Made by a program: the position numbers and the translations under genes. Shown here in pieces: positions 19,207-36,770 of a DNA stretch of 36,840 nucleotides. Numbering within the stretch: the first letter of the stretch is position 1; every line of letters starts with the position of its first letter. The DNA lies in IMG/VR virus record IMGVR_UViG_3300028571_002140, positions 1 to 36,840 of that record. The stretch is one strand, 5' to 3'. This DNA comes from a virus. Below the pieces are notes generated by a model, which searched no databases, had not been told where the DNA came from, and worked only from the letters and a program-made list of their open reading frames with translations.

Positions 19207-19642
19207 CTCACTTGTTGCACGCGTTGCAGCCCTTAAAACCTCGCCCACACCTGACCTCAAGCAAATGTGGCGAGAAATGTTTCAGACCGAACCACCACCG
19301 TTTAACCGGCGCTTCCTTGAAACGCGTCTGGCATACCGGATTCAGGAGCTGGCCCTTGGGGGCCTACGCCGCGAGACCGTCAAGCGCCTGGAGAAGCTTG
19401 GGGAACAACTCGATGGCGGCAAAGCCGATGTCCGCCGCCGCAGAGTTGATGGCAGGCCCATCTGCGGAACGCGCCTGATTCGGGAATGGGATGGTGAGCG
19501 CCACGAGGTGGTGGTGCACGTTGACGATTTCGAATACGCAGGTCAACGCTACAAGTCCATTTCACGCATAGCCATGGTGATTACAGGCACCAACCGAAAC
19601 GGTTGGACCTTTTTTGGCATGTCTTCTGGAAGGAGCGTCTGA
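19199..19642 (+). CDS. DUF2924 protein of the recombinase module
   Basis: 147 residues. The core PPPFNRRFLETRLAYRIQEL, GTRLIREWDGERHEVVVHVD, FEYAGQRYKSISRIAMVITG and NGWTFFGM are typical of DUF2924. This family is almost always encoded directly before a large serine recombinase in phages and genomic islands of proteobacteria. Its role is probably as an accessory or directionality factor (inference from association). Its stop shares one base with the recombinase ATG. Confidence 0.9.
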   Translation: MNDSLVARVAALKTSPTPDLKQMWREMFQTEPPPFNRRFLETRLAYRIQELALGGLRRETVKRLEKLGEQLDGGKADVRRRRVDGRPICGTRLIREWDGERHEVVVHVDDFEYAGQRYKSISRIAMVITGTNRNGWTFFGMSSGRSV

Positions 19643-20985
19643 TGGCTACCACCCCTAAAGTCCTGTGCGCGATCTACACGCGCAAGTCCACAGAAGAAGG
19701 CTTGGACCAAAACTTCAACTCACTGGACGCCCAACACGATGCATGCGCAAATTACATTGCCAGCCAAAAGTCTGAGGGCTGGGTAACGCTCAAGGACCGG
19801 TATGACGACGGCGGCTTCTCAGGAGGCACGCTTGAACGCCCGGCCATCAAGCGTCTGCTCGAAGACGTCCGGAAGGGTCTGGTGAACACCATCGTGGTTT
19901 ACAAGATTGATCGGTTATCACGGTCGCTTGCCGACTTTGCAAAGCTGGTTGAGCTGTTTGATCAGCACAAGGTGACCTTTGTTTCGGTCACCCAGTCCTT
20001 CAATACCACCACATCTATGGGGCGGTTGACGCTCAACATCCTGCTGTCCTTTGCGCAGTTTGAGCGTGAGTTGTCAGGTGAACGGGTGCGCGACAAGATT
20101 GCTGCCTCACGCAAGCGTGGCATCTGGATGGGTGGGATGCCCGCTTTGGGCTATGACGTGGTTGAGCGAAAACTGGTGCCCAACCCCAAAGAAGCAGCCA
20201 TTGTTCAGGAGATTTTTGCTCGCTTTGCGGCTACGCCCTCGATGTCCACCATCGTCAAAGACCTGCGCAAGCGCGGTGTCACCTCCAAATCATGGACAAC
20301 AGCCAAGGGCGTTGTCCGCGAAGGCAAGTTGATCACTAAAGGCCTTGTCTACAAGATCTTCAGCAACCCGGTCTACATTGGCATTGCGGCCTACAAGGGT
20401 CAGCACTTCCCTGGTGAGCATGACGGCATCATCACGCAAGAGCTGTGGGATACGGTGCAGACGCACCTGAAAAACGGCACCCCTATGAATAAGGCGAGGC
20501 TGGCGGGTAGGGGCAGCGCGCCCTCTCTACTGCGCGGACTTATTTTTTCTGAGCAAGGACGGGCCTTCACGCCTGGCTGGACGCGCAAGCAGCACAAGAC
20601 CTACCGCTACTACATCAACACCGACTCGATCAAGATCGGCAAAGAAAGCTGCGACATCTGCCGCATCCCCGCCGGTGAGATCGAACAGGTGGTGGTTGAG
20701 AAGATGCGCGGTATCCTGCGCTCACCAGAGGTGCTGGCCCACGCGGTGCGTGAGGTAAATACTCAGCGGCCCAAAGTTGAAGAGACAAACGCCATCAGCG
20801 CATTGCAGTCCATCGACGCGGTCTGGGACGAACTCTTCCCAGCGGAGCAGGCCAAGGTTCTGCATACCCTGGTTGATCGAATCACAGTGCGCAAGGACGG
20901 CATCGCAATCAAATGGCACGACAAGGGCTTGAACAAGCTGTTGCGCGACACGCTTGAACCACAAAAAGAAATGGAGGCTGCATGA
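19642..20985 (+). CDS. large serine recombinase (integrase/resolvase)
   Basis: 447 residues from the ATG at 19642, with AAGGAG upstream. The N-terminal resolvase domain (about 1-150) has AIYTRKSTEEG with catalytic Ser16 and the arginine motif YKIDRLSRSLADF. The FAQFERELSGERVRDKI segment marks the end of that domain. A recombinase domain follows (GYDVVERKLVPN to NPVYIGIAAYKGQ), then a basic region and a short C-terminal helix set. It lacks the long coiled coil of phiC31-type integrases. It probably integrates or excises the phage or the island. The host target site is not identifiable from this window. Confidence 0.93.
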   Translation: MATTPKVLCAIYTRKSTEEGLDQNFNSLDAQHDACANYIASQKSEGWVTLKDRYDDGGFSGGTLERPAIKRLLEDVRKGLVNTIVVYKIDRLSRSLADFAKLVELFDQHKVTFVSVTQSFNTTTSMGRLTLNILLSFAQFERELSGERVRDKIAASRKRGIWMGGMPALGYDVVERKLVPNPKEAAIVQEIFARFAATPSMSTIVKDLRKRGVTSKSWTTAKGVVREGKLITKGLVYKIFSNPVYIGIAAYKGQHFPGEHDGIITQELWDTVQTHLKNGTPMNKARLAGRGSAPSLLRGLIFSEQGRAFTPGWTRKQHKTYRYYINTDSIKIGKESCDICRIPAGEIEQVVVEKMRGILRSPEVLAHAVREVNTQRPKVEETNAISALQSIDAVWDELFPAEQAKVLHTLVDRITVRKDGIAIKWHDKGLNKLLRDTLEPQKEMEAA

Positions 20986-22980: not shown

Positions 22981-23069
22981 TTGGTGCCTTTGCTTGTGTG
23001 TCGACAACAGCAAACCATTTCCGAATGGCCTTCTGCTTGGATTTTTGGGGACGTAGGTGAAACTCTCAT
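22977..23069 (-). CDS. possible 30-aa linking ORF
   Basis: A 31-codon frame starts within the DUF3293 stop (ATGA overlap) and ends overlapping the next gene's ATG by 4 nt. The peptide starts MRVSPTSPKIQ and contains a CCC run. Translation through it would couple the flanking genes. The composition is not especially protein-like, so it may only be chance. Confidence 0.2.
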   Translation of the reverse strand: MRVSPTSPKIQAEGHSEMVCCCRHTSKGTK

Positions 23070-23500: not shown

Positions 23501-23555
23501 GCCCTAGGTTTACGATTTATGACAAAGGAAAAAGCCATTTCTAAAATCAAATGGT

Positions 23556-24077
23556 CTATGCAGGAGAAGATATTTTTGCGGCCAAAGTAGAAGCGAAAAC
23601 GGCCTTCATTTCTTGCGTGCCAACGCAAATCCGTACCAAATGGATCTCTGGGTAGTCCTCACTTCGACTCACTAGGCCGTTAATGATGATTTCAGCCGAC
23701 AACTCTGGTGGGAACTTGAAAACGCCAGTTCCGATCGCGGGCATGGCCATTGATTTGATTCCTGCTTCTTTGGCCACACGGAGAGTCTGCGCAACAGCAA
23801 GGTCGAGGTATTTCTCGGGGTGATCGTCATTGATGAAGCTGGCTGCCCTAGTGTGAATCACAAAGGGGTTTGGCAATTCAAAGCCGGGGGTCACAACCGC
23901 CTCACCCAGCGCAATAGGCGAATGGCGTCGGCAATACTGCTCGAGTTCTGGCCCGGCTGCCGTATGAATGGCACCGGCAACACCTGATCCAAAGCGAAGG
24001 TTGGCATTTGCTGAATTAACCAAGGCATCGACGTCAGGTTGATGGACGATGTTACCTACGACGATTTCAATGCGCAC
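23556..24077 (-). CDS. macro-domain protein (ADP-ribose binding/hydrolase)
   Basis: 173 residues starting at GTG 24077. The sequence IVVGNIVHQPDVDALVNSANAN, FGSGVAGAIHTAAG, ALGEAVVTPGF and AMPAIGTGVFKFPPELSAEI is a near-complete MacroD/YmdB-type macro domain, which binds ADP-ribose and often removes ADP-ribosyl marks. The catalytic-type Asn/Asn-Ala-Asn and glycine loop are present. The start overlaps the 3' end of the upstream frame by 8-11 nt, suggesting coupling. In defence islands macro domains may reverse ADP-ribosylation or sense NAD-derived signals. That role is inference here. Confidence 0.93.
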   Translation of the reverse strand: MRIEIVVGNIVHQPDVDALVNSANANLRFGSGVAGAIHTAAGPELEQYCRRHSPIALGEAVVTPGFELPNPFVIHTRAASFINDDHPEKYLDLAVAQTLRVAKEAGIKSMAMPAIGTGVFKFPPELSAEIIINGLVSRSEDYPEIHLVRICVGTQEMKAVFASTLAAKISSPA

Positions 24078-24648
24078 GCTTTTTCCCTCGAGATTTCTTC
24101 TTTTCCCACATCGACAAAATCACCTGATCCGAAATATCGCCCATACGTGGAATGACCCAATTGAAGCCGCCATCGCCCACGGCTTCATAAAATTCGTCGG
24201 GGGTCTTCCAAAGTCCCCACCATTAACAAACTGGCCCGCCTTGCCCATGTATTTCAATCAGACAGCCTACAAAAGCATGAGATCCGTCACTGCCAATCAA
24301 ACGGTAAGCGTGTAACGAAGCAAGCAAATAACCATCGTCACCGGCTTGCGCATATTCAATTCGTTGTCGCGCCCAATTCACACGATCGGCATCTTGAACT
24401 TCAACTTCCTTGGGGATTTCAAGGTTGTAACGAGTCTCTGAGTCTGAAAATTCAAGTTGAGCGATGTAACCCAACTTAAGGGCAGATTGCTCCCCAAGAT
24501 CGTTTATCAAAAAGTCCCATCCATCGACCTCCAGCCACTCGTAGATAAGACTTAGCCCCTCAGGCGCTTCTACACCAGCCGAAAATTCTCGCAATGCAGT
24601 GTCCGCGAGAGCTTGAAGGTTAGGAGGCAAATGCGGGGCAGTATTCAC
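24067..24648 (-). pseudogene. acidic protein gene interrupted by an in-frame TAA (141-aa ORF plus 51-aa extension)
   Basis: From GTG 24648 the frame reads 141 residues (MNTAPHLPPNLQALADTALR, then EWLEVDGWDFLINDLGEQSA and acidic/aromatic segments) to a TAA at 24225-24223. The same frame then continues for 51 codons (WWGLWKTPDEFYEAVGDGGF, NWVIPRMGDISDQVIL, basic tail) to a TGA at 24069, overlapping the macro-domain start. The extension looks like real protein and fits the gap. The gene may therefore be a nonsense pseudogene, a truncated functional 141-aa protein, or the product of a sequencing error. The family is unknown. Confidence 0.6.
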
Positions 24649-24668
24649 TCGGGACTTTCATTCATTTT

Positions 24669-24959
24669 TTACCAGTTGTCGTCGCTCATGCCAAACTTAT
24701 CGGCTTTTGAGTTTGGCCAGTCATCTTTGTCGTTAAAAACGGCTCCGAGTCCTGTGGCCGAGCTTCCCAAGCGGGTGCTGCCGTCAGTGCTAAAGCTTCC
24801 CATCTGAGTGAAAACAGACCCATCTGACCCAAAGGTGGTTGAGCCCATCTTTGTGTAGGTCGTGCCATCGGACGATACGCTGGTGGTATCCGAGACTTTT
24901 TGCAAAGTCTCCCCTGAATCGGAGACAGCGAATCGCCCCAAGATTTGCCAAAAAGACAT
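24669..24959 (-). CDS. small protein with tandem SDG-type repeats
   Basis: 96 residues from the ATG at 24959, with AGGAG 6 nt upstream; an ATG two codons earlier abuts the ribosome site and is unlikely. After a short N-terminus (MSFWQILGRFAVSDSG) there are three or four imperfect repeats of about 14 residues of the type SSDGTTYTKMGS, GSDGSVFTQMGS, STDGSTRLGSS. The C-terminus DDWPNSKADKFGMSDDNW is acidic. Repeats of this kind are expected to form beta-structure. No family is recognised. It is the first gene of the minus-strand island operon. Confidence 0.72.
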   Translation of the reverse strand: MSFWQILGRFAVSDSGETLQKVSDTTSVSSDGTTYTKMGSTTFGSDGSVFTQMGSFSTDGSTRLGSSATGLGAVFNDKDDWPNSKADKFGMSDDNW

Positions 24960-25022
24960 GTTCATCTCCTAAAAGTGATGATTTCGGTCTAAGCGACCGG
25001 GTACGACCTTCTCGTTCAAAAA

Positions 25023-25120: not shown

Positions 25121-26029
25121 GTGGTCAACAAACGTGTCGCTGCTGCACTTGACGACCTGACGCAGACGCAAAGAGAGCGACTTTTCTACATTGAAGTCAA
25201 AGCTTTCTTCTGTGGCGATCTGACCCGCGCGGATATTGAGAGACGCTTTGGGGTCAAGCCTGCTGCTTCAGCACGCGACCTAAGCACATACCGTCGCCTG
25301 GCACCACTCAACCTCTTCTACGACGCCGGTCAACGTAAGTACGCAACGACCGACCGCTTCACACCCTTGTTTGAACACTCAGCAGAGCGCGTTCTCACCT
25401 GGTTCCGAGCAGGCTTTGGCGACAACATGGACCAGAAGCTCAAGCGCTCTGTCCCCTGTGAAAGCGCCAGCGACCTGGTCAAACCCGAAATAGAAACACT
25501 GGCGACGCTCACTCGCGCCATTGCCGGAAGACGCCAGGTCAAGGTCAACTACCTGTCGTTGACCTCTGGAGCCTCAACAAAGACGCTGTGCCCCCTAGCC
25601 TTAGCCGACACTGGCCTGCGGTGGCATTTGCGCGCATATGACCGCGAAAAAGACCGCTTTGCTGACTTTGCGTTAACCCGAATCGTCAAGGCCAAGGCTC
25701 TTGACTCACCCATCCCTGTCGAAGAGCAGATCGAATCAGATGTGCAGTGGGCGCGGATTGTCCATATTGAACTGGTTCCACACCCTGGCATTGCACACCC
25801 AAAAGCCATCGAAGCAGATTTCAGAATGAACAACGGAGTGTTGGCACTCGACATGAGAGCCCCGCTGGTTGGGTATGCCCTGAGGCGATGGTCGGTAGAT
25901 TGCTCTCCCGAGCACAGCCTTGACCCCAAAGAACACCATTTATGGCTGCACAACCCACAAACCCTTTACGGTGTTGAAAGCGCCTCATTGGCTCCAGGCT
26001 TCGCCTCTTTCAGGTCATCCTCACAATGA
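25121..26029 (+). CDS. WYL-domain transcriptional regulator (BrxR/CapW-like)
   Basis: 302 residues, GTG start with AAGGTGGAG upstream. The N-terminal winged helix spans about 20-95 (LFYIEVKAFFCGDLTRADIE, RRFGVKPAASARDLSTY). A WYL domain follows at about 125-200 (GRRQVKVNYLSLTSGAS, LRWHLRAYDREKDRFADFAL), then a WCX-like C-terminus. BrxR/CapW proteins of this layout sit ahead of BREX and CBASS operons and repress them until a signal releases them. The WYL core reads WHL here. It precedes the ATPase operon by 130 nt, and an inverted repeat lies in that gap. Confidence 0.88.
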   Translation: MVNKRVAAALDDLTQTQRERLFYIEVKAFFCGDLTRADIERRFGVKPAASARDLSTYRRLAPLNLFYDAGQRKYATTDRFTPLFEHSAERVLTWFRAGFGDNMDQKLKRSVPCESASDLVKPEIETLATLTRAIAGRRQVKVNYLSLTSGASTKTLCPLALADTGLRWHLRAYDREKDRFADFALTRIVKAKALDSPIPVEEQIESDVQWARIVHIELVPHPGIAHPKAIEADFRMNNGVLALDMRAPLVGYALRRWSVDCSPEHSLDPKEHHLWLHNPQTLYGVESASLAPGFASFRSSSQ

Positions 26030-26070
26030 ATATGATTGAAATAAATATCATGCCTTTTTTGCCTGTAAGT

Positions 26071-26095
26071 GGTTGTACTGGCGTTGAGTACAACC
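26071..26095. promoter_or_regulatory. perfect inverted repeat between regulator and defence operon; likely operator
   Basis: Arms GGTTGTACT (26071-26079) and AGTACAACC (26087-26095) are exactly complementary, with a 7-nt spacer. There is no T-run, so it is not a classic terminator. The position, 65 nt before the ATPase ATG and just after the WYL gene, fits a dimer-binding operator. A smaller repeat, GCCATT-ACG-AATGGC, lies at 26115-26129. Confidence 0.6.
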
Positions 26096-26159
26096 TGCTT
26101 GTTGACGAATTGCAGCCATTACGAATGGCAATTAATTTCTGTATCACGGAGAAAAAATA

Positions 26160-28898
26160 ATGCTTGGACTGACCCTACGCGAAGAATTTCGGGGCAAGCG
26201 CCTCAAAGGGACAGCCATTGAGCTCTCCAACGATACGAACACCGGCGCGACACAGGTTGCCGCAAAGTCATTTCTGGAGATCACCTACCCCACACACGAT
26301 CTGCTGAAAGGTATCGAGGCTGTTGGGCCTAACAAAGGTCAGCCAATTGCCGTCATTGGTGAACGTGGCTTGGGGAAATCACACTTGATGGCAGCGCTTT
26401 ACCATGCTGTAAACGATCCGGTTTCGACGGAAGCATGGCTCAAATCTTGGGCGACGACCCTTGGGGATCCGAGCATTGGGAAGATTGCCCTTCGGAGTGA
26501 AATGCTGGTGATTGGCGAAAGCCTGCACCGCCAGCGATTCAAATTCCTCTGGGATCTACTGTTTGAACGCCATCCGAATGGCGCTTACATCAAGGGTAAA
26601 TGGGAGGGCATGGGTGCTGCCAAAACAGACATCCCATCAGACACACTAATTCTCGAATTGCTTCAGCACAGTCCAACGATGCTGCTGCTTGACGAGTTTC
26701 AGACCTGGTATGACGGTCTGACCAACACCAAGCAGTACCCCTGGAAGAACTGGGCTTTCAATTTCATTCAAATTTTGTCTGAGATCGCTAAGGAGCACCC
26801 AGACTTATTGGTGCTGGTTATTTCGGTTCGGAATGGTGGAAGCGACGCCTACCAACAAGTTCATCGCGTCAATCCGGTCGCAATTGACTTCAAGGCTGGT
26901 GGTAACGCCGAACGCATTCAACAAGACCGTCGACGTATGTTGCTGCACCGCCTGTTTGATAACCGATTGCAAATCGCCCCAACGAGCATTGAAGCCTTGG
27001 TCGCAAAGCATGTATCTGAATATTTCAGACTCATCGATGTTCCGCCTTCTGAGCAAGATCGAAAGCGTAAAGAATTTGCAGAGTCTTGGCCATTTGCGCC
27101 ACACTTGTTGCGACTGCTTGAAGAGCAAGTTCTTATCGCAACAGATGCTCAAGAAACACGAGACATGATCCGCATCTTGGCCAATTTATTCAAGAGCCAT
27201 GGCGAACTTGCACCGGTTCTGACCGCAGCAGATTTCAGGCTAGATGACGAATCCTCAGGTATCGGAGCTTTACTTGATTCGGTATCAAATGAGCACCACC
27301 GTACTCTTCGAGCCAAAGCCCAGCAGAACATCATCTCGGTGACTGAAGCAGTTCCGGACCATGCCAAATTGGCCCCGCATCTGCAAGAAATTGTGGGCGC
27401 GTTGTGGCTACGTTCCATCGCCGTTGGTAACCAAGCAGGTGCAGAGCCAGAAACACTCCAGACAGATGTCACACGTGATCGAGCCATTGATGACAATGCC
27501 TTCCAGGTTGAAATGGCCACGATCGTTGAAAACAGTTTTAACATTCATCAAGACGGGAATCGACTTGTCTTTAAAGAGGAAGAAAACCCCCAAGCCAAAC
27601 TTATGGCTTGTGCACGCAACGACAAGTTATTTTCTGACGGCTCTGACATGGCTCACCTCGCCAAGGAAGTTCGATACGTCATTGGCGGGACCGAGGAGGT
27701 TGCGAAAACATTCAGAGTAATTGCTTTGCCACAATCTTGGTTGTCGTCACCATGGGCATCGCTTGGTGAAGCCGAACAACCTGAACGCTGGGATGACAGA
27801 CTTCCAATTCTCGTCCTGCCCGAAGAGCCAGACAGCCTGGATCAGCGACTTGGACGTTGGATTAAAGACCATCTGCAAAAACGTCGCAACACTATTCGTT
27901 TTTTACTTCCACGTTCAGGCTCACTAAATGCATTCCAGGACCGTGATCTTTTGATCCTCGCCCGTGCTTCGATGAAGGCCCAGGAATGGAGTAGCCAAAG
28001 CCCGGAATACAAAAAACTGCAAACCAAATATCAGAACGATTTGCGTGAGATATTAAAAAAACGATTTGATCGCTTTGCAGTTCTCCATCGCTGGAATTTT
28101 TCCGATCCCAATCAATGCATATTTAATGTCGAAAGCCTTAAAAAACAAGGTTCCCAGATACCAGAAGGAATCGAAGAGGCAATTCTCAACGACTTATTTG
28201 TTCCAGAAGATTTCGAAGACTTAGTGCTTGCCGCCGCAAGTGAAAACACATCAGTTGGAAAACTGCTGAAAGAATTGCAAGAACCCCGACCCGCTGGCCA
28301 GGATTGCATTCCTTGGCTTGGGGAAACGCTGATGAAAGAACGCATTATTAGACTTTGCTCACGTGGCAAGGTGGTTATCAACTTACGCGGAATGGAAACT
28401 TTGCAGGCCCAGCCCGGCGAGGATGAAGACACGGCCTGGCGGCGCTTGAGGCCTAAGCTCTCCTTTACAGGGCGACAGCTTGATGAAGTCACTTTATTGG
28501 AGCCATCTGCTGTTCCAACTACTGGCGGATCAACTCATACAGCGACTGTATCAACTGATTTATCGAGCCCAGGTGGTCTTTTTGGAGTACCCACTCCATC
28601 GACACTAAACGACCCTACTCCAGGCGGATTCACGACAGTACCACCAAGTGGAGGCGGTATTTTTGGAGGCGGCGGAACAACGGCTAGAGCTAAGCCGCGT
28701 GTTGCACTAGGCAATCCGGCAACTTCACCGTTAAACCTAATTGGCAAACTCGAGGGTTGGGGCATTGGGCCAGCAACACAGGTTACAGAGGTGTCGATCA
28801 AAGTTTCAGCCGCCACCGGCGCACAACTTAAAGAGCTTCTCAAGAAGTTGCCCGATGGCATGACTTTCGAACTTAATCTTGAAAAAGAGGACAGCTGA
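26160..28898 (+). CDS. DUF499-type AAA+ ATPase (COG1483-like), BrxC/PglY-like role
   Basis: 912 residues. The N-terminal P-loop is GERGLGKSH (67-75) and Walker B is TMLLLDEFQTW (about 173-183), followed by ISVRN-type sensor sequence (LLVLVISVRNGG). The layout fits the DUF499 ATPases, large proteins found in defence loci beside DUF1156 methyltransferases. After about residue 785 is a Gly/Thr/Pro-rich linker (GGLFGVPTPSTLNDP, GGGIFGGGG), then a small alpha/beta tail. In BREX, the comparable ATPase (BrxC/PglY) is essential. The stop and the PglZ start share one base, so the two proteins are made together. Confidence 0.85.
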   Translation: MLGLTLREEFRGKRLKGTAIELSNDTNTGATQVAAKSFLEITYPTHDLLKGIEAVGPNKGQPIAVIGERGLGKSHLMAALYHAVNDPVSTEAWLKSWATTLGDPSIGKIALRSEMLVIGESLHRQRFKFLWDLLFERHPNGAYIKGKWEGMGAAKTDIPSDTLILELLQHSPTMLLLDEFQTWYDGLTNTKQYPWKNWAFNFIQILSEIAKEHPDLLVLVISVRNGGSDAYQQVHRVNPVAIDFKAGGNAERIQQDRRRMLLHRLFDNRLQIAPTSIEALVAKHVSEYFRLIDVPPSEQDRKRKEFAESWPFAPHLLRLLEEQVLIATDAQETRDMIRILANLFKSHGELAPVLTAADFRLDDESSGIGALLDSVSNEHHRTLRAKAQQNIISVTEAVPDHAKLAPHLQEIVGALWLRSIAVGNQAGAEPETLQTDVTRDRAIDDNAFQVEMATIVENSFNIHQDGNRLVFKEEENPQAKLMACARNDKLFSDGSDMAHLAKEVRYVIGGTEEVAKTFRVIALPQSWLSSPWASLGEAEQPERWDDRLPILVLPEEPDSLDQRLGRWIKDHLQKRRNTIRFLLPRSGSLNAFQDRDLLILARASMKAQEWSSQSPEYKKLQTKYQNDLREILKKRFDRFAVLHRWNFSDPNQCIFNVESLKKQGSQIPEGIEEAILNDLFVPEDFEDLVLAAASENTSVGKLLKELQEPRPAGQDCIPWLGETLMKERIIRLCSRGKVVINLRGMETLQAQPGEDEDTAWRRLRPKLSFTGRQLDEVTLLEPSAVPTTGGSTHTATVSTDLSSPGGLFGVPTPSTLNDPTPGGFTTVPPSGGGIFGGGGTTARAKPRVALGNPATSPLNLIGKLEGWGIGPATQVTEVSIKVSAATGAQLKELLKKLPDGMTFELNLEKEDS

Positions 28899-29887
28899 TG
28901 ACCATCGATGCTGGGGTTCTACATCGCCTAACCAAAGGCTCGCCTGAAGATGCTTGGCGCGTAATCATCAACAAAGCGCTTGAGATCAGCAGCAAGCCGT
29001 TGACCCAAAGCAATGCGGCCAGCGAGGTACTAAAGAGAGACCGAGAGATCGGGGCCTTTGACTACTTCTTGTCTTCCAGCGGCTGGGATCTTTGGCAATC
29101 ATTCGGTAACACGGTTGAAAGAACATCCGACCGCCTTGTGCGGTGGTGGAGCGAGCCCTACAGCGCAAAAGCTGTGTTGATACTTGATGGGTTGTCACTT
29201 CGTGAATTGCCTTGGCTATTGCAGGGTGCAAAAGAGCGAGGTTTTACCCTTCACGGGGCTACAGCGCACGCATCTGAATTACCCGGAGAAACCAACGAAT
29301 TTGCGAGAGCCCTTGGATTCGGTAGCCGCAGTCAACTTCAAAATAACGGCGGTGGGTTATCGCATCGCTTGCAATTGACAGAAACCGAATGTCTTGACAT
29401 GCCTTGGGCTGACTGTGCGAACCTAATTAACTCATCTCCAAATTGGGTTTTTTGGCACCATTGGCCGGACAGCAAACTTCATGATGGCGCGGTCGCTGGC
29501 CAAGGGCTTGACACGCTGTCACCAGACGCGGCATTACAACTGAGCAGCGACGACTTTTGGTCATTCGTTGAACGTTTAGCCACAGGCAGAAGATTAGTCA
29601 TTACATCAGACCACGGCTATGCCGCAAGTGGCTACTTTCCAGATGCGGAGGGTGAAGTTGGCCAGTTTTTGAAGAAAACTTTTTCCAGCGGGCGAAGCAA
29701 GTCTGGAAGTGGCGATACAGGTCCTTTTGTGCCGCCTGTAGCCCTTCAGTTAAATAGCCCTCATGGGGAATATCTTTTGGCAGTTGGACGTTGGAAGTGG
29801 AAAAGCCAGGGTGGCTACCCAACACTGACTCACGGTGGACTTTCAATTCTTGAGGTCTTGTCACCTTTCGTTGAACTAACAAAGTAA
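28898..29887 (+). CDS. PglZ-domain protein, short form
   Basis: 329 residues. The alkaline phosphatase-type metal motifs are visible: LILDGLSLRELPWLL with Asp97 and LVITSDHGYAASGYF with Asp238-His239. A C-terminal His (PTLTHGGLSILEVLSPF) completes the typical PglZ end. PglZ proteins of BREX and Pgl systems are commonly much longer, so this one is close to the bare catalytic domain with about 85 N-terminal residues. It starts inside the ATPase stop codon and is followed 8 nt later by the methyltransferase. It probably acts in the same complex; its chemistry in defence is not settled. Confidence 0.9.
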   Translation: MTIDAGVLHRLTKGSPEDAWRVIINKALEISSKPLTQSNAASEVLKRDREIGAFDYFLSSSGWDLWQSFGNTVERTSDRLVRWWSEPYSAKAVLILDGLSLRELPWLLQGAKERGFTLHGATAHASELPGETNEFARALGFGSRSQLQNNGGGLSHRLQLTETECLDMPWADCANLINSSPNWVFWHHWPDSKLHDGAVAGQGLDTLSPDAALQLSSDDFWSFVERLATGRRLVITSDHGYAASGYFPDAEGEVGQFLKKTFSSGRSKSGSGDTGPFVPPVALQLNSPHGEYLLAVGRWKWKSQGGYPTLTHGGLSILEVLSPFVELTK

Positions 29888-29895
29888 AGAAGATC

Positions 29896-32800
29896 ATGGC
29901 AACAAAAAAAGAACAGATTGCACAAGAAGCTGGTAAGGCCGTAAACGCTGGAAAAGCGGTTTCTATGGAAACAGTTGATTTCAACGACCCCAATCGGCCT
30001 AAGACCTGCCTTGAGGTCGATTTTCCGATTATTTCGGTTAATCAAGTTGCAACCATTGAAGCTGCATCTGGTGCTGCGAAGAAACCCATTTATCAGATGT
30101 CGAAATATTGGGCAAGGCGTCAATCTAGTGTATTCCGCTCCATGCTAATTGCAGCAGCGACGAAGTCTCCGGAAGATAAATCCCACGCAGCAAAGTTAGT
30201 TTGGGACAACTACTACGCTAATCACCAGAAAAAAGGTTCATTCAAGCAGCTTAAGGTAGCCGATATTTTTATGGGGGGCGGTACCACTCTTGTAGAAGGC
30301 TCACGTCTGGGCATGCAAATGGTGGGCAATGACCTAAATCCAGTCGCTTGGTTTGTAGTGAAGCAAGAATTGGCAAACGTTGATCAGGAGGAGGTACAAA
30401 AACTGCTGGCCGACATTGAGGCCGAAGTCAAACCGCAAATCATGCCGCACTTTTTTTGTGACGGCCCGGGTGATGAAAAAGGCTCATGGACGCACATTAC
30501 TTCCGATAAGGTGATGCCCGCCGATTTCAACCCGACCACGATTCCACGCGATGAGCGCAAGAATTACCGCTACGAAGGCCCTGAAATCATTTACACCTTT
30601 TGGGCCAAACACGGCCCTTGTCAGGTGACTGGGTGTGGTCACCGCACACCGATCATGAGCAGTCCGGTTGTGGCAATGAAAACCATCAGCGTTAAATTTT
30701 GGGAGCATACCTGCAGCAAATGTGAGAGCGCATTTCATGTTGAGGAGCATGCGGCGCGGCTGGCCCCCGATTCGCCGCTTTTTGTTGCACAGACTGAAAC
30801 TCCATTCACTGCACTTGATCCAAAAAAGGGAGTTCTATGTCCACACTGTGCTCATGTGGAAATGGTCAACCTAGGAAAGGGTAAGAACAAAAAAGTTGAT
30901 TTGAGCGTTCTTGTACATCCACAGTGGCTTTCTGGATCGTCCAAACAGGGCGACAATGGTGAAGAGTTTGGCGGCTCCGCTCAGGACAATGCCGCATCTT
31001 CGGCGCGATGGGATCAGGATCGTTCAGCAAAAAATCGGCTGTTAGAGGTACGAGGCGCATTACCGGATCAGGTTATCTGCCCAGAGACAGGTATATCTTT
31101 TTCCCCAGAAAAAGGTACGGTACCTAAGCGTTCAAACTTCACCTGCGCTGCCTGCGGTACGGTGCAAGACGTGATGAACTCAATAAAAGCCACTAAAAAA
31201 ACTGGTCAGATGGCGGCCTACGCAGTGCAAGGCTATTCACCGAAAAGAGATGCGTCAGGAAAACCCAACAGTGGACGCTTCTTTGCTGCCTTTGATACTG
31301 TGCGCGCACAACAGTACGACGCTGCTTCAGCGGAATGGGAAGAGCGCAAGAATACTGACCTTAAGGATTACTGGCCACGCTCTGAAATCCCCTACGGATT
31401 CATGACTGCTATTGCAAACAGTGATTTACGCGAAAACCATGGACTTACACATTGGTGGACGATGTTTAATCCGCGTCAATTACTGGTTCACGCACAACTA
31501 CTTAAAGCAATTGTGGAGGTCGGAGATTACAGCTGGCAAGTTCGAGAATTTGTTTTGTGTGCATTTCAACAATATGTTCGCTGTAACAACGGCTTGAGCA
31601 TTTGGCACATGAAAAACAACCAAATATCCGCTGCTCTTAGCAACAACAATTTTCACCCGAAATCTACAAGCTTAGAGCCAAGCGTTTTCAATAAAACTGG
31701 TGACGGTAATTGGAAGTCTGCAATTGGTGGTTTGATTGACTCATTAAACTGGGTAGCTAATCCGTGGGAGCTTGTGAGTGCTGAAGGTTTGATTACAAAA
31801 GATTTGGAACTATCAAAAAGTATCACAGGCAAAAGTGAAAAAGTTTTTCCTGGGGATCGAATTCAGCCAACTCAAATATTTTGTGGCTCATCGACTGATC
31901 TATCGCAACATCAAGATTCGAGCATTGATTTAGTCATTACTGATCCTCCGTTTGGTGGTCTGTTGCACTATTCAGAGCTTGCTGACTTCTTCTATGTTTG
32001 GCTTAGACTTGTACTCAAGGACAAGTATCCTGAGCACTTCGGCACCGAATACACACCCAAATCTTTAGAGGCGGTAGCCAATAAGGCTCGGGAGCCGGAA
32101 GATTCAGATGGTTTTTATCAACGGTTACTCACCCAATGCTGGCGTGAGGCATACCGAATGCTCAAGCCAGGCGGTATCCTTGCATTCACCTTCCACCACA
32201 GTGAAGACGAGCCATGGGTGGCCGTGCTTGAATCTCTTTTCGACGCTGGGTATTACCTAGAGGCCACTTACCCGATTCGCTCCGACGAGACCAAGGGTGA
32301 AGGCGAATTCGGCTCTAAAACTATCGAATACGACATCATCCATGTCTGCCGCAAACGAACCGAAGAGCCCAAGCCCGTGAGCTGGGGCCGGATGCGACGT
32401 GAAGTGATGGCCGATGTCAGGCAATTGCAGGGCATGCTGGAGAATCACGCCAAGGAGGGCTTGCCTGCTGCTGATATCCAAGTTATTCGGCGTGGTAAGG
32501 CTCTAGAGTATTTCTCCAGGCATTACGGAAAAGTTTATGTCGATGAAGGTCAAGCAATCTCAGTACGAGACGCGCTCATAGGCATCAATCAGCTCATTGA
32601 TGAAGATGCAGACAAAGGCAAAGAAGCCCCCCCGGTTAATTTGGAACCTATGTCTCGTCAATTTTTGCGGACATTCGATGGCAAGTCAGATATACCTCGT
32701 GACCAACTGCAGAAGTTTCTTAAAGGCTCCATCACAACACCAGATGAATTCGTACAGCGCGGGCGGTGTACAGAAAAGAATAAAGTTTTTACCTTAGTAG

Positions 32801-33108
32801 ACCCACTCGACTTTGCTCGCGACTGGCAAGGCAAGCACAAACGCAAACTCACATCTGATCTAGATCAGGCGCTCGTCTTGATTGGTGCCTGTATCGACGG
32901 TAGCGGAATCAATGCTGCCGACACATTAAAAAACGACAACTTCAAGCCTCATGCTGCCTTAAAACCACTTCTCGATTGGATGAGCAGACGTGCTGCCACG
33001 TCGCACTCGCGGAATGCGGCGATTCGAGCTATCTCGATTTATAACAACTGGGCTGCGCAAAATCAAAAGCAAGTCCAGCAGATGGCTCTATTTTTCGAAG
33101 AGGCGTAA
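29896..33108 (+). CDS. DUF1156-type Zn-ribbon adenine DNA methyltransferase (COG1743, PglXI-like)
   Basis: 1070 residues. The N-terminal DUF1156-like region (KPIYQMSKYWARRQSSVFRS) is followed by motif I VADIFMGGGTTLVEG (122-134) and GNDLNPVAWFV. Several CxxC pairs form zinc ribbons (HTCSKCESAF, LCPHCAHVE, FTCAACGTVQD). Motif IV DPPFGGLLHYSELADFFYVW begins at 683. A C-terminal helical region of about 300 residues may bind DNA or partners. This family includes PglXI of type 3 BREX and methylates adenine to mark self DNA, presumably. The modified site is unknown. It lies 8 nt after PglZ and 2 nt before the small gene. Confidence 0.9.
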   Translation: MATKKEQIAQEAGKAVNAGKAVSMETVDFNDPNRPKTCLEVDFPIISVNQVATIEAASGAAKKPIYQMSKYWARRQSSVFRSMLIAAATKSPEDKSHAAKLVWDNYYANHQKKGSFKQLKVADIFMGGGTTLVEGSRLGMQMVGNDLNPVAWFVVKQELANVDQEEVQKLLADIEAEVKPQIMPHFFCDGPGDEKGSWTHITSDKVMPADFNPTTIPRDERKNYRYEGPEIIYTFWAKHGPCQVTGCGHRTPIMSSPVVAMKTISVKFWEHTCSKCESAFHVEEHAARLAPDSPLFVAQTETPFTALDPKKGVLCPHCAHVEMVNLGKGKNKKVDLSVLVHPQWLSGSSKQGDNGEEFGGSAQDNAASSARWDQDRSAKNRLLEVRGALPDQVICPETGISFSPEKGTVPKRSNFTCAACGTVQDVMNSIKATKKTGQMAAYAVQGYSPKRDASGKPNSGRFFAAFDTVRAQQYDAASAEWEERKNTDLKDYWPRSEIPYGFMTAIANSDLRENHGLTHWWTMFNPRQLLVHAQLLKAIVEVGDYSWQVREFVLCAFQQYVRCNNGLSIWHMKNNQISAALSNNNFHPKSTSLEPSVFNKTGDGNWKSAIGGLIDSLNWVANPWELVSAEGLITKDLELSKSITGKSEKVFPGDRIQPTQIFCGSSTDLSQHQDSSIDLVITDPPFGGLLHYSELADFFYVWLRLVLKDKYPEHFGTEYTPKSLEAVANKAREPEDSDGFYQRLLTQCWREAYRMLKPGGILAFTFHHSEDEPWVAVLESLFDAGYYLEATYPIRSDETKGEGEFGSKTIEYDIIHVCRKRTEEPKPVSWGRMRREVMADVRQLQGMLENHAKEGLPAADIQVIRRGKALEYFSRHYGKVYVDEGQAISVRDALIGINQLIDEDADKGKEAPPVNLEPMSRQFLRTFDGKSDIPRDQLQKFLKGSITTPDEFVQRGRCTEKNKVFTLVDPLDFARDWQGKHKRKLTSDLDQALVLIGACIDGSGINAADTLKNDNFKPHAALKPLLDWMSRRAATSHSRNAAIRAISIYNNWAAQNQKQVQQMALFFEEA

Positions 33109-33110
33109 CC

Positions 33111-33632
33111 ATGAAAATCCTGCAGGGTGATGTCTGGAAGCGAAGGGGGGTTAGCCTCCTATGGGAGGCTAACTCGCTGTCGGCTTTGGTCGAGCCTAAA
33201 GATGTTGTTTCAATAAGGCAGTTTTTCTCACTCGTGGGAAATTGGCCGAATGATTTACCTTGCAACGAAGGGAACACATTGGTCGTCGCGGGGCTTGAGG
33301 GTTGCGTTGATTTGATGGAACCTGAGGAAGCTGAAGGCTGGTTGAAATCAGAATTCCTGCCCGCTGTTCTTGCGTTTCAAGATGAATATAGTCTTGAGGC
33401 TGCACTTGTCTTTTGGTTACCCACTGGAAAGAGCCGGGTCCGTATGAACCGAGCAACAGAGGCCTATACGTGGATTTGTTCCGCCCCACATAGTAATCAA
33501 CACCTCGACATTGGTCGAATACTTTGGGCCGGAGCTGAGGCTGATGTTGGCCGAATCATTGATTCTGACAATAACAACCCAGACCCAGACGGGGCGGCTT
33601 GGATTGGACTTCATCACTCGAGGTTGTCTTGA
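33111..33632 (+). CDS. unknown protein between methyltransferase and helicase
   Basis: 173 residues, spaced 2 nt from both neighbours, so it is part of the same tight operon. It starts MKILQGDVWKRRGVSLLWEA, with VVAGLEGCVDLM and AALVFWLPTGKSRVRMN in the middle. The C-terminus (WICSAPHSNQHLDIGRILWA, DPDGAAWIGLHHSRLS) has several aromatic and acidic residues. No catalytic motif or known domain is visible. PTGKS is not a full P-loop. Conserved position would suggest an adaptor or specificity subunit, but this cannot be shown here. Confidence 0.85.
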   Translation: MKILQGDVWKRRGVSLLWEANSLSALVEPKDVVSIRQFFSLVGNWPNDLPCNEGNTLVVAGLEGCVDLMEPEEAEGWLKSEFLPAVLAFQDEYSLEAALVFWLPTGKSRVRMNRATEAYTWICSAPHSNQHLDIGRILWAGAEADVGRIIDSDNNNPDPDGAAWIGLHHSRLS

Positions 33633-33634
33633 TA

Positions 33635-36412
33635 ATGGCCGAGGAAGTCTTTACCCCTGGCGAGCGAATAACCCATCCAGAATACGGCCCAGGCGTTGCA
33701 CTTGAAATTGCACGTGACGGATATTTGCGGGCATTTTTTGGGGTTGGTGAACGCCGAGTTCCGCTTGGGTCTATACGTCGAGAACTATCGCGGACAGAGC
33801 GTATTTTGCGTGCTGTAGATGGAACAGCCGATAGATCACGCAAGGCTTGGCTGTCTTATGAAGCCCACGCTCTGCCAGTTATGGAAAGTGCATCGGCATT
33901 AACCTCGGCAAAAATTGATCTACTCCCTCACCAAGTAGTGCTGACACACCGCATTGCGACTGCATCACCACGTCGTTACCTTATTGCTGACGAAGTGGGC
34001 CTCGGTAAGACTATCGAGACCGCTCTGATCTTGCGGGAGCTCGCAAGCCGTGGGGAACTAAGTCGAGCACTTATGGTGGTACCAGCTGGTTTAGTAAACA
34101 ACTGGCATCGTGAGTTGAATGATGTCTTCAACCTTGATTTTGAGGTGTTCGGATCTGAGGGTGACATTACCGATAGAAAAACGAACGCATTTTCTAAGCA
34201 CGATCGCTTGATTGCAAGTATCGACACGCTCAAAAGGCCTGCACGTATCAAACGCCTATTGGACGCTCCACGTTGGGATTTAGTGGTTTTTGACGAAGCT
34301 CACCACTTAACGGCATACCGCACCGGTGGAAAAGTTCGAAAGACTGAAAACTACAAACTTGCAGAGGCATTAAAAGACCACTCGCGGGACCTTTTGCTGC
34401 TTTCGGCCACTCCTCACCAAGGCAACCATTTTCAATTCTGGATGTTGGCACAGCTACTTAACCCAACAATGTTTGGCAGTCCTGAGGAAATGCTTGAGCA
34501 CAGGCACCGTCTAAATACTGTGATGTATCGACGAACCAAGGCAGACGCATGCCAGCCAGATGGATCCCCTCTGTTCGCTCGACGATGGGTACATACCGAA
34601 TCATTTCTCATGGGCATAGAGGAAAAGCTCTTTTACGAAAAACTGCGCGAGTACCTTGAAGACGGTTTTAATTTAGCAAGGCGGCAAGGCGGCAAGGGTC
34701 AGGCACTTGGATTTTTAATGGCAATTTTCCAAAAAATTGCTGCATCCAGTTTTGCTGCCGTTCGACGAACACTCAAACGTCGTCTTCTGATGTTGACACT
34801 TCATGAAGCCTTTTTAAGAGACAAAGAACTCGACATCGAAGGCCGTGAATTGTTGACCAATGAAGCCAGGGAATTGGTTCATGAAGAATTTAACCTGTCT
34901 CGCGACAGCATTGGTCGCAGTGAGGTTGATCGTGTCATTGCCGATTTGAAATTCCGATTAGTTAAGAAGCTAGATGCCGAAGCACTGGAACTTGCTTCAG
35001 ATCCCTACGGAAGTGAGTATTCCTCAGCACATGCTGAGGAGGCGGCATCAGCCGTAGTCGAAATGCATTTGCCAGAAGAGCGCTTACGCATCGGGGACTT
35101 GCTCAATGTTTTCCCTCAACAGCGGGAAACCAAAGCCCAGAAATTGTTAGATGGATTGGGAATTTTGTGGCGACAGAATCCCAATGAAAAAATCGTAATT
35201 TTTGCAACTTACCTTGGCACTGTCGATTTAATTGCACGTGAGATCGACCAGACATTTCCTGGGCAAGGCGTAGTGGTTTTGCGCGGTGGTGATCACGGTG
35301 CAAAGGTCGCTGCTGAACGTCGCTTCCGCCAAAAAGATGGACCGAGAGTATTGGTATGCACGGCTGCGGGCCGAGAAGGCATCAACCTTCAATTCGCTAG
35401 GATTCTATTTAACTTCGACCTGCCCTGGAATCCCATGGATATCGAACAGCGTATCGGTCGAATCCACCGTTATGGGCAAAACCATACGGCGCAGGTCTAC
35501 AACCTAGTGATGTCTGACACGATTGAGGGCAGGATATTTTTACTTTTAGATGAAAAGTTAACTGAGATTGCTCGTACCGTTGGCAAGGTGGACGATGAGG
35601 GCAACGTTGCTGAAGACCTTCGCGCGCAGATTCTCGGTCAACTCTCCGAGCGCTTGAACTATGACCGTCTCTATCAAGAGGCTCTGTCTGATCCGGAATT
35701 GAAACGCACGAAGGTTGAACTTGAAGCTGCCATGTCAAATTCGCAGGAAGCGAGACAAGTAGTTTTTGATCTGTTCCAAGACCTCAATGGATTCAGTCTT
35801 GATGACTACAAACCCTTTTCTGACGTTTCGTCTGGGCTTGGTCGCTTGGTTAGATTTATGTCAGCTGCTGTTGAAGATCGACAGCAAAAGCTAATCAAAA
35901 TCGACGAAGAGACATATGACCTCGTGAGTGTCGACGGGACTCGGCGCGCTAGATTTACGTTGAACCGAGAAACTGCAACTGGGAGTGACACTATTGAATT
36001 GATGGGCTTAGATCACCCTTTGGTACAAGAAGAATTAGGCCGGTGGCGAAGTGTGCCCCCTGAAGAAATTGGCGTGGCTGTTAAGGGCGATTTGGCCGAA
36101 CCCGTAATGCTTTCTTTATGGATGGTTGAAGCCTCAGGAAAAAACGGCGAGCGAAGAGTGGTTGTTCAAGCCATTGCTGTCAAACAAGACGGTAGCCGTG
36201 TGCCGTCCGTGGAGCGGCAAAGTGAGCACTACATGCAATCTTCACCATCAAAGCCAGCATTTTCACCAGAGCGACGAATAGAGCTATTTTCTACTGCCGT
36301 TGAACCGACCTTGCAACGTGAACTTAAGCATAAAGGGGCTGCAAATGGCGATGGCAGCTACTCGGCCGAATTGATCGGATATGTTGAGATCACAAATCTA
36401 GTGCCTCAATAA
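33635..36412 (+). CDS. SNF2-family DEAH helicase (BrxHII/DrmD-like)
   Basis: 925 residues from the ATG at 33635, 2 nt after the preceding stop; a TTG at 33599 would overlap it. N-terminal residues include a small strand-rich domain (FTPGERITHPEYGPGVAL). The SNF2 core has YLIADEVGLGKTIETALIL (motif I), VVFDEAHHLTAYR (motif II), LLLSATPHQGN (III) and the C-terminal helicase lobe ending QRIGRIHRYGQ (VI). The C-terminal 250 residues have no known domain. Similar translocases in BREX type 3 (BrxHII) and DISARM (DrmD) act on phage DNA. It is the last gene of the operon. Confidence 0.93.
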   Translation: MAEEVFTPGERITHPEYGPGVALEIARDGYLRAFFGVGERRVPLGSIRRELSRTERILRAVDGTADRSRKAWLSYEAHALPVMESASALTSAKIDLLPHQVVLTHRIATASPRRYLIADEVGLGKTIETALILRELASRGELSRALMVVPAGLVNNWHRELNDVFNLDFEVFGSEGDITDRKTNAFSKHDRLIASIDTLKRPARIKRLLDAPRWDLVVFDEAHHLTAYRTGGKVRKTENYKLAEALKDHSRDLLLLSATPHQGNHFQFWMLAQLLNPTMFGSPEEMLEHRHRLNTVMYRRTKADACQPDGSPLFARRWVHTESFLMGIEEKLFYEKLREYLEDGFNLARRQGGKGQALGFLMAIFQKIAASSFAAVRRTLKRRLLMLTLHEAFLRDKELDIEGRELLTNEARELVHEEFNLSRDSIGRSEVDRVIADLKFRLVKKLDAEALELASDPYGSEYSSAHAEEAASAVVEMHLPEERLRIGDLLNVFPQQRETKAQKLLDGLGILWRQNPNEKIVIFATYLGTVDLIAREIDQTFPGQGVVVLRGGDHGAKVAAERRFRQKDGPRVLVCTAAGREGINLQFARILFNFDLPWNPMDIEQRIGRIHRYGQNHTAQVYNLVMSDTIEGRIFLLLDEKLTEIARTVGKVDDEGNVAEDLRAQILGQLSERLNYDRLYQEALSDPELKRTKVELEAAMSNSQEARQVVFDLFQDLNGFSLDDYKPFSDVSSGLGRLVRFMSAAVEDRQQKLIKIDEETYDLVSVDGTRRARFTLNRETATGSDTIELMGLDHPLVQEELGRWRSVPPEEIGVAVKGDLAEPVMLSLWMVEASGKNGERRVVVQAIAVKQDGSRVPSVERQSEHYMQSSPSKPAFSPERRIELFSTAVEPTLQRELKHKGAANGDGSYSAELIGYVEITNLVPQ

Positions 36413-36421
36413 CCGACTCGA

Positions 36422-36500
36422 TACCGGTTTGCGGTCATAGCGCTCTGAAGAACAAAATTTCGTTCGGCTTGATTCAAAGCCCGTTTTGCCGAAACCGGTA
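36422..36500. repeat. near-perfect inverted repeat downstream of the helicase
   Basis: TACCGGTTTGCGG (36422-36434) and CCGAAACCGGTA (36489-36500) are complementary except for a one-base gap. They are separated by 54 nt and lie between the operon end and the tRNA. This could be a terminator-like structure or a remnant of an attachment site. No T-run follows. Confidence 0.4.
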
Positions 36501-36610
36501 AATTCACGGCTCGGAACCAAGTCCGAAAAAGTCATGAGGTTTTGAGACAAACGGGGTTTGAGACGCCTTTACCGGGCCAATGGCGCAGGTCGCAGTCAGG
36601 AGCCCAAAGC

Positions 36611-36634
36611 AAAAAGCCCCGCGTGGTGCGGGGC
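36611..36634 (-). terminator. rho-independent terminator after tRNA-Ser
   Basis: A 7-bp GC stem (GCCCCGC 36616-36622 and GCGGGGC 36628-36634, 5-nt loop) is followed on the minus strand by five T (36615-36611). It lies 47 nt past the tRNA 3' end and ends that transcript. Confidence 0.8.
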
Positions 36635-36680
36635 CTGAGGCTGCCTCAAGGCCTGCTGAGCAGGTTTGAGGTCTTTGTAC

Positions 36681-36770
36681 TGGCGGAGGAGGAGGGATTC
36701 GAACCCTCGGTAGTGTTGCCACTACGCCTGATTTCGAGTCAGGTACATTCGACCACTCTGCCACCCCTCC
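36681..36770 (-). tRNA. tRNA-Ser (anticodon CGA)
   Basis: 90 nt including encoded CCA. The acceptor stem GGAGGGG pairs with CTCCTCC, with discriminator G. The anticodon stem-loop reads CTGACTCGAAATCAG, giving anticodon CGA, which reads UCG. A long variable arm (GTAGTGGCAACACTAC) is typical of tRNA-Ser, and the T-arm has GGGTTCGAATCCC. Its 3' end faces the defence island, as expected for a genomic-island insertion site. Confidence 0.96.

What the first reader, a model, noticed from the sequence alone, without database searches (positions are those of the whole stretch)
25121..36412. BREX/DISARM-like defence operon of unusual composition
A WYL regulator is followed by five tightly packed genes: DUF499-type ATPase, PglZ, DUF1156 Zn-ribbon methyltransferase, an unknown 173-aa protein and a SNF2 helicase. 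The parts match type 3 BREX (ATPase, PglZ, PglXI, BrxHII) but the order differs, PglZ is short, and no BrxA or BrxF homologue is recognised. DISARM hallmarks DrmA/DrmB (DUF1998) are also absent. DUF499 (COG1483) and DUF1156 (COG1743) are known neighbours in defence islands, so this may be a distinct or transitional subtype.
Basis: partly seen in the sequence, partly recalled or inferred. Interest (0 to 1): 0.85.

Follow-up and report, generated by a model that had tools for sequence, protein, structure and literature searches.

The report
Prophage-linked Type-3 BREX-related defence operon
Next to a virus hidden in a bacterial genome lies a complete five-gene anti-virus defence system with its own switch gene; it belongs to a recently named class (Type-3 'BREX-related'), found with the same gene order in dozens of unrelated bacteria, so it is a real system but not a new kind.

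Summary
In detail: a BrxR/CapW-type WYL regulator and five tightly packed intact genes at 25121-36412. The gene order is not unique. All 68 fetched loci carrying the five genes have exactly ATPase-PglZ-methyltransferase-small protein-helicase on one strand, from Pseudomonadota, Acidobacteriota and others; Klebsiella plasmids carry it too. Composition matches the 'Type-3 BREX-Related (BR)' system named in January 2026 (PMC12839542): DUF499 ATPase, Zn-finger N6-methyltransferase, nuclease-less BrxHII-like helicase, standalone PglZ and a small 'iSTAND'. So it is neither Type-3 BREX nor DISARM, and not an undescribed subtype. PglZ is supported by structure (PorX); calling the 173-aa protein an iSTAND is inference, since comparison with BrxF and a fold search were both non-significant. 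Most likely it is a methylation-based restriction-like barrier using PglZ as nuclease. Additional observations: the operon lies between a prophage's serine recombinase and a tRNA-Ser, an arrangement repeated in two other contigs; the 173-aa gene occurs as two allele classes exchanged between operons, its similarity tracking the methyltransferase C-terminus; relatives carry complete second defence systems inserted inside this operon. New member of a known kind, interest moderate.

The parts
25121..26029 (+). WYL-domain transcriptional regulator of the BrxR/CapW family
   Evidence: Pfam WYL 48 bits; phmmer to solved WYL proteins: 7qfz E 9e-75, CapW 9c5g 1.5e-36, BrxR 7t8k 2e-16
26071..26095 (.). 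candidate operator: perfect 9-bp inverted repeat GGTTGTACT-N7-AGTACAACC between regulator and operon (function inferred)
   Evidence: only one other of about 83 upstream regions has an 8-bp or longer repeat, and the motif is not conserved even in L044, whose regulator is 91% identical, so weak
26160..28898 (+). DUF499-type AAA+ ATPase (912 aa), Walker A and B intact, fast-evolving stretch at residues 781-870
   Evidence: Pfam DUF499 33.1 bits vs cut-off 23; motifs in 79/80 rows; variability profile
28898..29887 (+). standalone PglZ (329 aa), alkaline-phosphatase-fold metal-dependent nuclease/phosphatase domain
   Evidence: AF2 model to PorX PglZ, 17 PDB chains with E 2e-5 to 3e-4 and probability 1.0; next hit 9zn5 (BREX BrxC-BrxB/PglZ) E 0.01; SDHGYA in 80/80 relatives
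29896..33108 (+). N6-adenine-type DNA methyltransferase of the HmaB/PglXI group (1070 aa) with a target-recognition insert between motif I (125) and motif IV (683) and two 4-Cys clusters (C242/C247/C273/C276; C315/C318/C417/C420)
   Evidence: PADLOC HmaB 125 bits, PglXI 93, DUF1156_MTase 77; NF042963 95 bits; conserved cysteines
33111..33632 (+). 173-aa protein, presumed inactive STAND (iSTAND) sensor/adaptor; one of two exchanged allele classes
   Evidence: present in every complete locus; AF2 pLDDT 87.7; fold search non-significant, 38 of top 50 hits P-loop folds; no sequence link to BrxF
33635..36412 (+). SNF2/RapA-type helicase of the BrxHII group, no nuclease domain (925 aa)
   Evidence: PADLOC BrxHI|BrxHII 345 bits; SNF2 and Helicase_C, no nuclease, in Pfam; RapA structures E about 1e-40
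36445..36680 (.). conserved non-coding block downstream of tRNA-Ser; its left edge marks the junction with the inserted, variable DNA
   Evidence: 74-89% identical beside tRNA-Ser in several Burkholderiales genomes, similarity ending near 36423-36445 in the best matches
36681..36770 (-). tRNA-Ser (CGA), 3' end facing the operon
19603..20985 (+). large serine recombinase (with DUF2924 gene 19199-19642 and HTH gene 20982-21392), presumed integration module of the element
   Evidence: Pfam Resolvase, Recombinase and zinc ribbon; same module beside a BR operon in L006 and L022
3..18006 (-). prophage early/packaging genes: portal, terminase large and small subunits, ParB-MTase, primase, helicase, Cas4-like exonuclease, Sak4, sigma-like factor
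   Evidence: PHROGs

Best explanation
It is a complete, apparently intact Type-3 BREX-Related (BR) phage-defence system, controlled by a BrxR-like WYL regulator and carried at the end of DNA inserted beside a tRNA-Ser gene, probably as cargo of the prophage that fills the rest of the contig. Proposed working: the Zn-finger methyltransferase marks a specific sequence on host DNA by N6-adenine methylation. The DUF499 ATPase and the 173-aa protein form the DNA-scanning and sensing core. When unmethylated invading DNA (or a phage signal) is met, the SNF2 helicase moves along or unwinds the DNA and the standalone PglZ cuts it. The WYL protein keeps the operon low until infection. Shown here: gene content, order, intact motifs, fold of PglZ, family of the WYL, MTase and helicase, recurrence in many bacteria. 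Inferred from literature on relatives: methylation as self mark, PglZ as nuclease, helicase role, WYL repression. Inferred with least support: iSTAND identity of the 173-aa protein.
For: Five-gene order identical and co-oriented in 68/68 loci carrying all five, including one with the ATPase only about 50% identical (L005). Published definition of Type-3 BR: DUF499 ATPase + N6-MTase (a subset with two 4C Zn-fingers) + BrxHII-like helicase without nuclease + standalone PglZ + iSTAND (PMC12839542); each part except the iSTAND was met by tests here. The PglZ profile also touches PorX by sequence (E 0.07). BREX PglZ has been shown to be a metal-dependent nuclease contributing to defence (PMC12205998). 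In a sample of 398 genomes of one phylum, the 173-aa family and this PglZ family occur together (4 genomes with both) and never with BrxF; the two exceptions are a contig break and a decayed remnant.
Against: No experiment on a Type-3 BR system was found, so defence itself is by family. The DUF1156 Pfam domain was not detected in this MTase at E <= 0.1; the link to DUF1156 proteins runs through PADLOC and NCBIfam models and through the plasmid relatives' annotation. iSTAND identity of the 173-aa protein: hhalign to BrxF probability 0.3%, Foldseek best E 0.23. The loci were collected with ATPase and MTase queries, so they sample relatives of this subfamily rather than all Type-3 BR. No second attachment repeat was found, so carriage by the phage rather than neighbourhood is inferred.
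Confidence: 0.85

Rival explanations
1. A divergent or reduced Type-3 BREX system that has reordered its genes and lost BrxA and BrxF.
For: Helicase closest to the BrxHI/BrxHII models (345 bits) and MTase hits PglXI; PglZ tail touches NF033449 BREX_PglZ_3 (15 bits).
Against: PglZ scores 15 bits against a cut-off of 250 and is half the length (329 vs 642); the ATPase hits DUF499, not DUF6079; the small protein has no Walker A and no profile similarity to the fetched BrxF proteins; one fixed order in 68/68 loci is not what sporadic reduction would give.
Confidence: 0.06
2. An undescribed, transitional subtype between BREX and BR/Hma.
For: 2023 PADLOC models recognise the parts only as distant relatives and do not recognise ATPase, PglZ or the 173-aa protein.
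Against: The composition is that of Type-3 BR as published in 2026, and the family is widespread.
Confidence: 0.05
3. The operon is a host-side defence island that merely neighbours the prophage; the phage does not carry it.
For: Another defence operon (DrmD/DpdE-like helicase, DrmMI-like MTase, HNH) sits at the same tRNA-Ser edge in G485; a TmtA-like defence gene pair flanks the operon in L004; IMG/VR contig ends are not prophage ends; no att repeat found.
Against: Serine recombinase + HTH + BR operon + tRNA-Ser in the same order and orientation in three unrelated contigs (window, L006, L022); L003 has the operon between a phage-type integrase and endolysin genes, L002/L004 next to endolysin and tail genes.
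Confidence: 0.35
4. The locus is decayed and inactive.
For: Remnants exist elsewhere (L133), and the ATPase ORF of a Klebsiella plasmid relative lacks the N-terminal 213 residues with the P-loop.
Against: In the window all frames are open and all catalytic motifs are intact.
Confidence: 0.04

Closest known systems
Type-3 BREX-Related (BR) system (Rakesh & Krishnan, NAR 2026, PMC12839542)
   Same: DUF499 ATPase, Zn-finger N6-MTase with two 4C fingers, BrxHII-like helicase without nuclease, standalone PglZ, small extra core gene
   Different: iSTAND identity of the 173-aa protein not demonstrable here; the prophage/tRNA-Ser location and the nested IetAS and SIR2-HerA systems of relatives were not found in that paper's main text (for IetAS/SIR2)
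Type-3 BREX (BrxF, BrxC, PglXI, BrxHII, PglZ, BrxA)
   Same: homologous MTase, helicase, PglZ domain and AAA+ ATPase logic
   Different: no BrxA, no BrxF, PglZ half-length, DUF499 instead of DUF6079 ATPase, other gene order
Type-1 BR / Hma system (HmaABC)
   Same: helicase (309 bits to HmaA) and MTase (125 bits to HmaB) homologous
   Different: no C-terminal nuclease on the helicase; PglZ and the small protein added
DISARM (DrmD/DrmMI) and Dpd (DpdE)
   Same: SNF2 helicase of the DrmD/DpdE superfamily
   Different: no DrmA, DrmB, DrmC or other Dpd genes; scores below curated cut-offs (298 vs 610 for DrmD, 231 vs 500 for DpdE)

Membership tests
Type-3 BR system | DUF499 AAA+ ATPase | tested here: met
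   Pfam DUF499 33.1 bits over cut-off 23, no DUF6079 hit; Walker A and B intact
Type-3 BR system | N6-MTase with TRD insert after motif I, 4C Zn-fingers (two in a subset) | tested here: met
   HmaB/PglXI/DUF1156_MTase hits; motif I at 125 and IV at 683, two conserved 4-Cys clusters between them
Type-3 BR system | N-terminal DUF1156 domain on the MTase | tested here: inconclusive
   no Pfam DUF1156 hit at E <= 0.1; plasmid relative annotated DUF1156
Type-3 BR system | BrxHII-like Swi2/Snf2 helicase without fused nuclease | tested here: met
   345 bits BrxHI|BrxHII; no nuclease domain in Pfam; RapA-like
Type-3 BR system | standalone PglZ with intact metal site | tested here: met
   PorX matches; motifs conserved; N-terminal 85 residues are a helical extension
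Type-3 BR system | iSTAND protein (82% of members) | tested here: inconclusive
   small core gene present, no Walker A; fold search E >= 0.23 though 38/50 top hits are P-loop folds; no BrxF profile match
Type-3 BR system | ATPase in a DUF499 clade distinct from BrxC | not tested
   no tree with BrxC or other BR types was built
Type-3 BREX | BrxF present | tested here: not met
   no NCBIfam hit; hhalign to fetched BrxF proteins probability 0.3%
Type-3 BREX | BrxA present | tested here: not met
   no unassigned ORF in the operon, no BrxA hit
Type-3 BREX | full-length BREX-3 PglZ | tested here: not met
   15 bits vs cut-off 250
DISARM | DrmA and DrmB (DUF1998) | tested here: not met
   no DrmB/DUF1998 hit; the only DrmA hit is the shared helicase core
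Hma / Type-1 BR | helicase with C-terminal PD-(D/E)XK nuclease | tested here: not met
   925-aa helicase, no nuclease domain
BrxR/CapW regulators | wHTH-WYL architecture related to solved BrxR/CapW | tested here: met
   near full-length match to 7qfz, 9c5g, 7tb6, 7t8k

The most novel reading that the evidence does not exclude
The 173-aa protein is an exchangeable recognition or trigger subunit that works together with the methyltransferase C-terminus. It exists in at least two allele classes (77-82% within, about 38-50% to the other class) that are swapped between operons whose ATPase and helicase are otherwise about 75-95% alike (single origin of the window's class on the ATPase+helicase tree rejected, p-AU 7e-8). 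Its similarity between loci tracks the last 70 residues of the methyltransferase (rho 0.69, partial 0.57) and almost nothing else in the operon. This would make Type-3 BR specificity modular and horizontally retunable. Plain physical linkage during recombination is not excluded.
Probability: 0.3. Interest if true: 0.55.

Novelty: new member of a known kind. Interest (0 to 1): 0.36.

Why it matters
It adds an intact, regulator-equipped, prophage-linked member to a defence class that is named but, as far as found here, experimentally untouched. It also shows that an HMM set in common use (PADLOC 2023) misses three of its five genes. The same operon, with another defence system nested inside, sits on conjugative Klebsiella plasmids including a KPC plasmid, so the class is medically present. 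The fixed order with hot spots for inserted second systems, and the swapped 173-aa allele, give simple tests of which part decides specificity.

Tried and rejected
Type-3 BREX (BrxF, BrxA, PglZ and BrxC tests fail). DISARM and Dpd (only the shared SNF2 helicase). Hma/Type-1 BR (no nuclease, extra PglZ). Sequence search of the 173-aa protein in PDB: only a designed propeller, spurious. BrxF profile link: none. Attachment-site search: the left edge of the tRNA-Ser block is a single copy in the window and occurs once each in two other genomes; the only direct repeat in the right half of the window is a 16-mer judged chance. Inverted repeat as WYL operator: not conserved in L044 (91% identical regulator) or elsewhere, so left as a candidate. 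Papers on phage carriage of BREX-related systems or on IetAS nested in BREX: nothing relevant. Annotated phage records: no relative of the MTase beyond a distant Sulfolobus virus enzyme. Whole host genome: not available, the record is a 36.8-kb IMG/VR contig. An intact-looking 173-aa gene alone in G111 turned out to be a remnant with truncated neighbours.
Full report
What is there. The five core genes are packed with gaps of -1, 8, 2 and 2 bp; the helicase most likely begins at ATG 33635. No frame is broken and every catalytic motif is intact. The record is a 36.8-kb IMG/VR virus contig, so the host genome is not available.

What the genes are. The regulator is a BrxR/CapW-type WYL protein (7qfz E 9e-75). 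The 912-aa ATPase is DUF499 (33 bits over a cut-off of 23) with no hit to the BrxC family DUF6079. The 1070-aa protein is an N6-MTase of the HmaB/PglXI/DUF1156 group (NF042963), with motif I at residue 125, motif IV at 683 and two conserved four-cysteine clusters between them. The DUF1156 Pfam domain itself was not detected. The helicase is of the BrxHII/RapA type and has no nuclease domain. PglZ is a 329-aa protein: its AF2 model (mean pLDDT 70) matches PorX PglZ chains with probability 1.0, followed by the BREX PglZ complex 9zn5. The 173-aa protein has no family hit. Its model is confident (pLDDT 87.7), but Foldseek gives nothing significant (best E 0.23); by my count 38 of the 50 listed hits are RecA, AAA+, ABC or other P-loop folds.

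Recurrence. Scans with the ATPase and MTase gave 85 loci beside the window. Sixty-eight hold all five genes, and all 68 have the order ATPase-PglZ-MTase-173 aa-helicase on one strand. Record titles name alpha-, beta- and gammaproteobacteria, Acidobacteria, Chlorobi and others. In an even sample of 398 genomes of one phylum, the 173-aa family occurs in 5 and this PglZ family in 5 (plus one weak hit in a genome that has BrxF), 4 of them shared. The exceptions are explained by a contig end (G153) and a decayed remnant (G111). No genome of the sample had both BrxF over its cut-off and the 173-aa family.

Comparison with the known. Rakesh and Krishnan (NAR 2026, PMC12839542) define three DUF499-centred BREX-Related types. 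Type-3 BR has a DUF499 ATPase, an N6-MTase (a subset with two 4C Zn-fingers), a helicase like BrxHII without nuclease, a standalone PglZ and, in 82%, an iSTAND. The window operon fits part by part. The iSTAND is the only assignment not demonstrated: the BrxF proteins fetched here keep a Walker A motif, and hhalign between the two families gives a probability of 0.3%, no better than unrelated controls. It is assigned by position, size, lack of a P-loop motif and fast evolution.

How it probably works. [quoted passage not shown] BREX MTases mark host DNA; BrxR-type WYL proteins repress defence operons (general knowledge). So methylation marks self, the ATPase and 173-aa protein sense and assemble, the helicase moves on DNA and PglZ cuts. 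No experiment on Type-3 BR was found.

Fast-evolving parts. Conservation along the proteins dips at ATPase residues 781-840, at the MTase recognition region 541-660, at its last 50 residues, and over the whole 173-aa protein. The 173-aa protein comes in two classes. The window shares its class with L002, L004, L009, L015 and L072 (77-82% identity); the rest are 38-50% identical to it. On an ATPase+helicase tree L072 sits beside L069, which has the other class, and a single clade for the window's class is rejected (p-AU 7e-8). Pairwise similarity of the 173-aa protein follows the MTase C-terminal 70 residues (rho 0.69; partial 0.57 given the ATPase core), weakly the helicase N-terminus (0.47; 0.20), and little else. 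Either a recombination block or a functional pair would give this; elevation on both immediate neighbours favours at least some linkage.

Nested systems in relatives. In 24 loci the PglZ-MTase junction and in 6 the 173 aa-helicase junction hold more than 250 bp of extra DNA. Three of the inserts tested are whole two-gene defence systems: IetAS (L025; same-sized gene pairs in several others), SIR2-HerA (L026; also the Klebsiella plasmids) and HEC-01, an OLD-like ATPase with DUF4276 (L027). ORFs with Schlafen/AlbA (L069) or lipase (L005) domains lie in the MTase-173 aa gap. The 2026 paper reports OLD-ABC/TOPRIM and Schlafen partners, but its main text has no mention of SIR2, Iet or subtilase. 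The window's own junctions are empty.

Genomic setting. Left of the operon lie prophage packaging and replication genes and a serine recombinase with DUF2924 and HTH genes. Right of it is a tRNA-Ser with its 3' end facing the operon. Recombinase-HTH-BR operon-tRNA-Ser recurs in the viral contig L006, which also has phage terminase and tail genes, and in the Rhodospirillaceae MAG locus L022. In L002, L003 and L004 the operon lies next to endolysin, tail or integrase genes. The 236 bp between the block's left edge and the tRNA-Ser are conserved beside tRNA-Ser in other Burkholderiales, with similarity stopping about 10-35 bp from the operon's end in the best matches. In G485 the same edge borders a DrmD/DpdE-like helicase, a DrmMI-like MTase and an HNH protein. 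So this looks like an insertion hot spot for defence systems. That the phage itself carries the operon is likely (about 0.65) but not proven; no second attachment copy was found.

Verdict. A well-made observation of a real, intact defence operon whose class was named shortly before. New member of a known kind; the modular 173-aa/MTase-tail idea and the nested systems are what a specialist might follow.

Noticed in passing
L025:13802-17454, L026:13778-16655, L027:17441-19182 (and similar loci): Complete two-gene defence systems (IetAS, SIR2-HerA, HEC-01) are inserted inside the five-gene operon of relatives, at the PglZ-MTase or 173 aa-helicase junction, in the operon's own orientation.
   Followed up: partly
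L141 (NZ_CP007734.1, plasmid pKPN-262) and L142 (NZ_CP022349.1, plasmid pK516_KPC): Conjugative Klebsiella plasmids carry this operon with SIR2-HerA nested in it; on the KPC plasmid the annotated ATPase lacks the N-terminal 213 residues that hold the P-loop, as in several similar plasmids.
   Followed up: partly
window 36445-36680; L111, L112, L113: A conserved non-coding block downstream of tRNA-Ser in Burkholderiales marks the edge of variable defence DNA; in G468 (L113) the block, with 14 bp of the tRNA end, lies away from any tRNA, next to a transposase-like gene. No Rfam family matched it.
   Followed up: partly
L111:1436-9060: At the same tRNA-Ser edge in another genome: DpdE/DrmD-like helicase (618 bits to one DpdE model), DrmMI/type IIG-like methyltransferase and HNH protein, possibly a distinct three-gene restriction system.
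   Followed up: partly
L004:1012-5819: A TmtA-like defence protein split into two ORFs (1043 + 467 aa) next to the BR operon.
   Followed up: no
window 23066-24965: Between recombinase and regulator: DUF3293 protein, macro-domain protein (weak DarG similarity) and two small unknown genes on the minus strand, possibly further accessory or defence cargo.
   Followed up: no
L133:7612-8866: A decayed remnant holding only MTase C-terminus, the intact 173-aa gene and helicase N-terminus in one genome.
   Followed up: yes
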